From NCBI GenBank assembly GCA_026417155.1, contig JAOADU010000071.1:1-40791 (forward strand): 40,791 bases of DNA, in the 5' to 3' direction. The position numbers were made by a program, and so were the translations under genes. This document shows positions 30,452 through 31,994 of this stretch, piece by piece (position 1 is the first letter of the stretch; each line of letters starts with the position of its first letter). The DNA comes from Bacteroidales bacterium. Lineage in GTDB: Bacteria > Bacteroidota > Bacteroidia > Bacteroidales > GWA2-32-17. Below the pieces are notes generated by a model. The model was not told the origin of the DNA, did no database searches, and saw only the letters and a program-made list of their open reading frames with translations.

Positions 30452-31243
30452 ATGGAATTATATAAAATATACAACGAAGATTGCTTAATTACAATGGGCA
30501 GAATGCCTAATGAGTTTATTGATTTTGTAATTACATCACCTCCATATGATGATATTAGAAATTATAATGGATTTCATTTTGAATTTGAAAAAATTGCTCA
30601 TGAACTATTTAGAATATTAAAAATTGGAGGCATCGTAATTTGGGTTGTTGCAGATGCAACTGTGGATGGAAGTGAAACAGGTACATCCTTCAAACAAGCT
30701 TTGTTTTTCAAGGAAAAAGTTGGATTTCGTATTCATGATACAATGATATATTACAAAAACAATCCAATGCCTCAAACTGGTAAAAGATATCATCAACATT
30801 TTGAATATATGTTTGCTTTTTCCAAAGGTTCACCAAAAACTTTTAATCCCATTACTGAACAAACAAAATACCGTGGTCTTGCAAATATGAAAAATAGAGG
30901 TAAAGAAGGATTACTAGATTATGAAAAAGTACCACGAACTACTGAAAAAAAAGTTGGTAATGTATTTTTTTATTCTGTTGGCGGTGGAATATCAACAAAA
31001 GACAAAATCGCTTATCATCATCCTGCTATTTTTCCTGAACAATTAGTGTATGATCAAATCTATACTTGGACAAATGAAGGTGACTTGGTTTATGATCCCT
31101 TTATGGGAAGCGGAACCACCGCGAAAGTCGCACATATTATGAACAGAAAATGGATTGGTTCAGAGATTTCAAAAGAATATGTTGAAATTGCTAATGAAAG
31201 GTTAAAAAATTACACTACAAATAATTTGTTTACAAAAAAATAA
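30452..31243 (+). CDS. Site-specific DNA methyltransferase (N4-cytosine/N6-adenine, beta-type motif order), Type II R-M
   Basis: TSPPYDDIRNY (motif IV) followed by YDPFMGSGTTAKVAHIMNRKWIGSEISKEYVEIANERL (motif I). Confidence 0.94.
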   Translation: MELYKIYNEDCLITMGRMPNEFIDFVITSPPYDDIRNYNGFHFEFEKIAHELFRILKIGGIVIWVVADATVDGSETGTSFKQALFFKEKVGFRIHDTMIYYKNNPMPQTGKRYHQHFEYMFAFSKGSPKTFNPITEQTKYRGLANMKNRGKEGLLDYEKVPRTTEKKVGNVFFYSVGGGISTKDKIAYHHPAIFPEQLVYDQIYTWTNEGDLVYDPFMGSGTTAKVAHIMNRKWIGSEISKEYVEIANERLKNYTTNNLFTKK

Positions 31244-31244
31244 T

Positions 31245-31994
31245 ATGAATTTAGTTGAACGAGGTTCTCTAATTGCAAAAAATGGCTTTAAGAATGAAGA
31301 CGATATTGTAAAAAAATTTAATGACTGGAAAAAAGACAAAGATGCTCAAGCATGGTTAGTTATTATGAAGTATGAACTTTCAGAAATTGAGTATGTTGAA
31401 GCTGTAAAAATATCAGGTTACAAAACTGACGTTCAAGTACAAATTACCATAAAACTCAAGAAAGCAATTGACATTGAAAATTTGCAGGTTAAATTGGTAA
31501 GTAATCCTAAAGGGTTTAATCAAATTGATAAGCGATGGGTTGACAAATATGCAGAAATGTGGAATATGCCTGAACAAATTGTTTCTATACTAAAGAGATA
31601 TACAGGTGAAGAAAAACCTACTATTAATAAACCTAAAGATAAAAGAAGAATGTTTGCAAATGAATTTTCTAAAGTTGAACAGGAAGTTATTTTAAAATGG
31701 TTAAAGAAAAATCAATCTTTAATTGTTTCTGACATTTTGAAAGGACAGGGGAAAATTTGCAGCAGAATGGATGTTAGCTACTCAAAAAGTTGAGAAAAAT
31801 GCAAGATGGATACTTAAACCCATGAATTTTTTATATGAATTATTTCGGGAACGGAGAAATTAAAATAACAAATAGAGGAAATTATAAAAATTGGAAGAAT
31901 TACTATGCAACGTAAAGGTGGTGATGGAGGAAGAGATACTGCAAAAATGTTACAATTTAAAATTAATCCTGCAGAATTGTTTACTCATGAATAA
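31245..31994 (+). pseudogene. Type II restriction endonuclease, reading frame broken by three +1 homopolymer shifts
   Basis: The 182-aa ORF 31245-31793 continues across three frames: GKFAAEWMLATQKVEKNARWILKPMNF / YMNYFGNGEIKITNRGNYK / IGRITMQRKGGDGGRDTAKMLQFKINPAELFTHE*; removing one base at each of three homopolymers restores a single ~249-aa ORF. Confidence 0.82.

What the first reader, a model, noticed from the sequence alone, without database searches (positions are those of the whole stretch)
31245..31994. Restriction endonuclease broken by three single-base homopolymer expansions while the methyltransferase is intact
The frame moves 0 to +1 to +2 to 0 at GGGGAAAA (31748-31755), T6 (31827-31832) and A5 (31886-31890). 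Deleting one base at each site restores a continuous C-terminus ...LKGQGKFAAEWMLATQKVEKNARWILKPMNFYMNYFGNGEIKITNRGNYKIGRITMQRKGGDGGRDTAKMLQFKINPAELFTHE*, with no other lesion. Three same-direction shifts in about 140 nt of otherwise clean sequence point to very recent decay, slippage/phase-variation, or base-calling error. If real, the methyltransferase has become an orphan.
Basis: partly seen in the sequence, partly recalled or inferred. Interest (0 to 1): 0.7.

Follow-up and report, generated by a model that had tools for sequence, protein, structure and literature searches.

The report
Frameshifted HinP1I-type restriction enzyme gene
A bacterial DNA-cutting gene of a well-known kind (HinP1I type) carries three one-base insertions that cut its protein short while the neighbouring DNA-methylating gene stays intact, a commonplace way for restriction systems to decay, though a local assembly error cannot be excluded without the reads.

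Summary
ORF 31245-31793 is the first 167 codons or so of a HinP1I-family Type II restriction endonuclease (PF11463; solved relative 1YNM). Aligned with ten relatives of the two-gene operon, the window carries exactly three private length changes, all +1: at 31748, at 31827, and in 31884-31890. All lie in the last third of the endonuclease; the methyltransferase gene (30452-31243) has none. About 20 relatives run through to ...QFKINPAELF, so the family does not end at residue 182.

General base-calling error is unlikely: no other frameshift turned up in 391 kb of this genome (test sensitivity 132/150). A local consensus error cannot be excluded without reads. Constraint on the intact part is still strong, so any real break is recent. 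Phase variation is poorly supported. The same decay recurs in relatives and is published for the GCGC-specific Hpy99III system of Helicobacter pylori, where the endonuclease gene is present in 61 of 459 strains and functional in 15, with the methyltransferase predicted in all.

Side finding: HinP1I-type endonucleases occur with two unrelated methyltransferase partners, the usual C5 type or, here, a TSPPY amino-type (inferred N4-cytosine). Verdict: ordinary decay, new instance of a known kind.

The parts
30452..31243 (+). Intact DNA methyltransferase, 263 aa, N6_N4_Mtase family (PF01555), motif IV TSPPY; inferred N4-cytosine methyltransferase
   Evidence: PF01555 146.6 bits; full-length alignment with 11 relatives without private indels and 2 private substitutions at invariant sites against 0-4 in its near relatives; nearest solved structures include DNA cytosine-N4 methyltransferases; best PADLOC model is an orphan-MTase model, 284 bits
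31245..31793 (+). Truncated HinP1I-family restriction endonuclease ORF, 182 aa; in frame with the family up to about codon 167
   Evidence: PF11463 3.9e-50; ungapped phmmer match to R.HinP1I 1YNM residues 1-173, 3.8e-58; PADLOC REase_II 245.9 bits
31748..31748 (+). First private +1 (G run); frame lost
   Evidence: gap in all ten aligned relatives; G run one base shorter in L010
31827..31827 (+). Second private +1 (T run), next to a G-to-A substitution (conserved Cys to Tyr)
   Evidence: gap in all ten aligned relatives; relatives read ATGAATTTTTGT...; C212Y in alignment columns
31884..31890 (+). Third private +1 (A at 31884 or in A5 31886-31890; ambiguous); original frame regained
31794..31994 (+). 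Untranslated remainder of the endonuclease gene, still recognisable to its natural stop at 31992-31994
   Evidence: PF11463 matches through to position 208 with stops inside; about 80-87% nucleotide identity to most relatives kept

Best explanation
This is a Type II restriction-modification operon of HinP1I type, methyltransferase gene first and endonuclease gene second, whose endonuclease gene has recently become a pseudogene through three single-base insertions. The first insertion ends the protein at residue 182, keeping the aligned catalytic core but losing the conserved C-terminal part, so no functional endonuclease is expected (inferred). The methyltransferase gene is intact and presumably still methylates the shared target, as an orphan. 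Losing the endonuclease first is the order expected, because losing the methyltransferase first would expose the chromosome to cutting. By homology the target is GCGC; since that site holds no adenine, a TSPPY-type enzyme would have to make N4-methylcytosine (inferred).
For: Full-length intact relatives with the same C-terminus; three private +1 changes and no others in the operon alignment; methyltransferase clean. Low error elsewhere: no frame switch in 391 kb that was not an ordinary gene junction, sensitivity 132/150. Slight signs of relaxation: three private substitutions at otherwise invariant endonuclease positions (T23I, V194A, C212Y in alignment columns), against 0-2 in relatives of similar branch length, two of them radical. 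Recurrence: in-frame stop in L021 and a frameshift in L024, both with the methyltransferase intact; broken endonuclease beside an intact dcm on one Spiroplasma citri plasmid, intact pair on its sister plasmid. Published parallel: Hpy99III, PMC8706393.
Against: The intact part looks as constrained as in relatives (dN about 0.06-0.09, dS about 0.5-2). Three insertions with so little substitution is more than simple drift predicts, which leaves room for a local sequence error. No reads or second isolate were available.
Confidence: 0.66

Rival explanations
1. Local consensus or assembly error: the organism's gene is intact and the draft genome carries three false insertions, for example in a stretch of low coverage or mixed strains.
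For: All three changes are +1 at homopolymers within 140 nt; the rest of the gene shows strong constraint. In L023 the methyltransferase is frameshifted while the endonuclease is intact, a state expected to be lethal, so such drafts do contain false frameshifts.
Against: No comparable frameshift in 391 kb of the same genome, though A and T runs of 5-8 are abundant there; longer runs in the same operon are in frame. A false insertion would not explain the G-to-A change beside the second site or the private T-to-I change at a position conserved across the family.
Confidence: 0.27
2. Phase variation: tract-length changes switch the endonuclease on and off.
For: All three changes lie in or beside homopolymers; such switching is known for other methyltransferase genes (PMC9465063, poly(G) and GA tracts).
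Against: Tracts are only 4-6 nt, three must change together, intact relatives do not have long tracts at these sites, and longer runs in the operon are unaffected.
Confidence: 0.03
3. The 182-residue product is a functional short form, or the full protein is made by programmed frameshifting.
For: The HinP1I-aligned core is complete and ungapped, and the third insertion regains the original frame.
Against: Every intact relative carries the C-terminal part. Three separate shifts would be needed for full-length product. No relative shows the same arrangement; the broken relatives carry different lesions.
Confidence: 0.02

Closest known systems
R.HinP1I (Haemophilus influenzae P1; G^CGC; PDB 1YNM, 2FKC, 2FL3)
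   Same: Endonuclease family: ungapped alignment over residues 1-173, E 3.8e-58; full PF11463 profile covered once stops are read through
   Different: Frameshifted after about codon 167; partner methyltransferase is amino-type, whereas the partner of HinP1I itself is C5 (from own knowledge, not tested here)
Hpy99III system of Helicobacter pylori (GCGC; M.Hpy99III universal, endonuclease mostly absent or pseudogene)
   Same: Same target by inference; endonuclease lost by stops or frameshifts while the methyltransferase is kept (PMC8706393)
   Different: There the methyltransferase is m5C type; here it is an unrelated amino-methyltransferase
Spiroplasma citri plasmid HinP1I-like systems (CP047439.1 intact, CP047440.1 endonuclease broken)
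   Same: HinP1I-like endonuclease broken beside an intact methyltransferase
   Different: C5 (dcm) methyltransferase partner; endonuclease only about 50% identical

Membership tests
HinP1I restriction endonuclease family (PF11463) | Profile match above curated cut-off | tested here: met
   170.6 bits against cut-off 25 for the ORF; 223.7 bits over positions 1-208 with stops read through
HinP1I restriction endonuclease family (PF11463) | Complete open reading frame including the conserved C-terminus (QRKGGDxGRxTAxMLQFKINPAELF) | tested here: not met
   Open frame ends at 31793; the C-terminus is present only beyond the stops and in shifted frames. Filed as a pseudogene of the family, not a functional member
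HinP1I restriction endonuclease family (PF11463) | Cleavage at G^CGC | not testable with these tools
   Needs an assay; GCGC is scarce in the genome (0.47 of expected) but equally so in two of three same-genus genomes without the system, so this is not diagnostic
Type II restriction-modification system | Adjacent methyltransferase and endonuclease genes conserved together | tested here: met
   Same two-gene order in L005, L011-L017, L019, L021, L023, L027, L030, L031
Orphan DNA methyltransferase | Intact methyltransferase without a functional cognate endonuclease in the genome | tested here: inconclusive
   The only PF11463 locus in the genome is the broken one; an isoschizomer from another family was not searched for, and methylation activity is untested
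N4-cytosine methyltransferase | (S/T)PPY catalytic motif and N6_N4_Mtase fold | tested here: met
   TSPPY and PF01555. The modified base itself is inferred; this motif does not exclude N6-adenine
Phase-variable gene | Long simple-sequence tract whose length varies | tested here: not met
   Tracts of 4-6 nt; no long tract at these sites in relatives. Within-strain variation could not be tested

The most novel reading that the evidence does not exclude
HinP1I-type endonucleases have exchanged methyltransferase partners, between a C5-cytosine enzyme and an unrelated TSPPY amino-methyltransferase (inferred GCGC N4mC), in a mobile two-gene cassette shared by Bacteroidota, Ignavibacteria, Kapabacteria and others, and in this genome the amino-type partner is now an orphan.
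Probability: 0.5. Interest if true: 0.4.

Novelty: new member of a known kind. Interest (0 to 1): 0.2.

Why it matters
It documents one more recent loss of an endonuclease with the methyltransferase kept, the order needed for restriction systems to turn into orphan methyltransferases. The intact relatives give a natural set for testing whether two unrelated methyltransferase classes protect the same site from the same endonuclease family.

Tried and rejected
GCGC scarcity as a footprint of the system: 0.47 of expected, but 0.39, 0.50 and 0.78 in three same-genus genomes lacking the endonuclease, so not diagnostic. A frame-switch candidate in L045 proved to be two complete transporter genes with an over-extended start. 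Flanking repeats marking an insertion: only chance-like matches. Phage and viral collections: no relatives. Single origin of the amino-methyltransferase pairing: neither shown nor rejected (2 changes; AU p 0.12). Different identities of methyltransferase and endonuclease to the same relatives (0.77-0.79 against 0.82-0.87 for most) hinted at recombination within the operon but were not pursued.

Full report
WHAT IS THERE. The window is one 40,791-base contig of a 2.44-Mb, 90-contig draft genome, 94.5% complete. At 30452-31243 lies a 263-aa methyltransferase gene, followed one base later by the reported ORF 31245-31793 of 182 aa. The ORF matches the R.HinP1I endonuclease family (PF11463, 3.9e-50) over the first 136 of 208 profile positions, and R.HinP1I itself (1YNM) without gaps over residues 1-173. 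A genome-wide search that reads through stops extends the match to all 208 positions with four stops inside.

THE LESIONS. Relatives from many draft genomes, and others from whole-genome searches, run on past the point where the window stops and end ...MQRKGGDGGRxTAxMLQFKINPAELF. The window holds this C-terminus in three frames. A nucleotide alignment of the whole operon with ten relatives gives exactly three length differences private to the window, each +1: 31748, 31827, and 31884 (equally well placed in the A5 at 31886-31890). There are none in the methyltransferase gene apart from a 3-nt insertion shared with L011. The alternative that the family ends at residue 182 is refuted.

ERROR OR DECAY. 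A three-periodic coding model was trained on this genome and used to look for frame switches inside genes in 391 kb (20 sampled stretches and the window). With simulated insertions it detected 132 of 150. All switches but three were ordinary junctions between neighbouring genes; of those three, one was resolved by its ORFs as two complete genes, and the other two fall beside a plausible start codon at a short gene overlap. The model does not itself call the short triple event at the strict setting, so it could miss equally compact clusters. Homopolymers as long or longer are abundant in intact genes, and within the operon A8, T7 and A7 runs are in frame. A general homopolymer error is therefore unlikely; a local one is not excluded.

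SELECTION. The still-open part of the endonuclease gene has dN about 0.06-0.09 and dS about 0.5-2 against its closer relatives, like those relatives among themselves. Three substitutions fall at positions invariant in the comparison set (T23I, V194A, C212Y in alignment columns), against 0-2 in relatives of similar branch length; the T is conserved throughout the family. This is a weak hint of relaxed constraint. The methyltransferase shows no excess, 2 against 0-4 in its near relatives. The break, if real, is recent.

RECURRENCE AND PRECEDENT. Other relatives are broken in different ways: an in-frame stop at codon 50 in L021 with the methyltransferase intact, a frameshift near codon 157 in L024 with an intact C5 methyltransferase, a missing N-terminus and no methyltransferase in L028, and in L032 a truncated methyltransferase, an extra ORF and a frameshifted endonuclease. 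Two plasmids of one Spiroplasma citri strain carry an intact and a broken copy beside intact dcm genes. For the GCGC-specific Hpy99III system of H. pylori, the methyltransferase was predicted in all 459 strains, while the endonuclease gene was found in 61 and predicted functional in 15 (PMC8706393). A methyltransferase 69% identical to the window's stands without a HinP1I-type neighbour in L095. The closest PADLOC model is an orphan-methyltransferase model.

MECHANISM. Shown: sequence state, homology, operon conservation. Inferred: the truncated protein is inactive; the methyltransferase still acts; target GCGC; modified base N4-methylcytosine. GCGC has no adenine, so an amino-methyltransferase protecting it must modify cytosine, which fits TSPPY and the N4-cytosine enzymes among the nearest solved structures.

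SIDE FINDING. HinP1I-type endonucleases occur with two unrelated partner methyltransferases: C5 (L006, L007, L022, L024, L025, L026, Spiroplasma plasmids) or the TSPPY type (window and its near relatives). Endonucleases about 77-78% identical to the window's (L022, L024) carry the other partner. The tree needs two partner changes; one origin is not rejected (AU p 0.12). Same-genus genomes lack the endonuclease, and the operon sits between two blocks that are not adjacent in them, consistent with horizontal acquisition.

VERDICT. An ordinary, probably recent decay of a Type II endonuclease with the methyltransferase retained; new instance, known kind. The main open question is whether reads confirm the three insertions.

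Noticed in passing
L006, L007, L022, L024, L025, L026 against the window, L005, L011-L017, L019, L027, L031: HinP1I-type endonucleases are paired either with a C5 methyltransferase or with an unrelated TSPPY amino-methyltransferase, suggesting partner exchange at a conserved target.
   Followed up: partly
L023:677-1471: Methyltransferase frameshifted while the endonuclease is intact, a state expected to be lethal; likely a sequence error in that draft genome.
   Followed up: partly
L032:2409-2969: An extra ORF with a possible endonuclease-like motif sits between a truncated methyltransferase and a broken HinP1I-type endonuclease.
   Followed up: no
window 30452-31994: The methyltransferase is less similar to most relatives (0.77-0.79) than the endonuclease is to the same relatives (about 0.82-0.87), hinting at recombination within the operon.
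   Followed up: no
G000 sampled stretches; G398, G399, G400: GGCC, CTAG, GCGC and GATC are strongly under-represented in this genome and in two of its three same-genus relatives, irrespective of the HinP1I-type system.
   Followed up: partly
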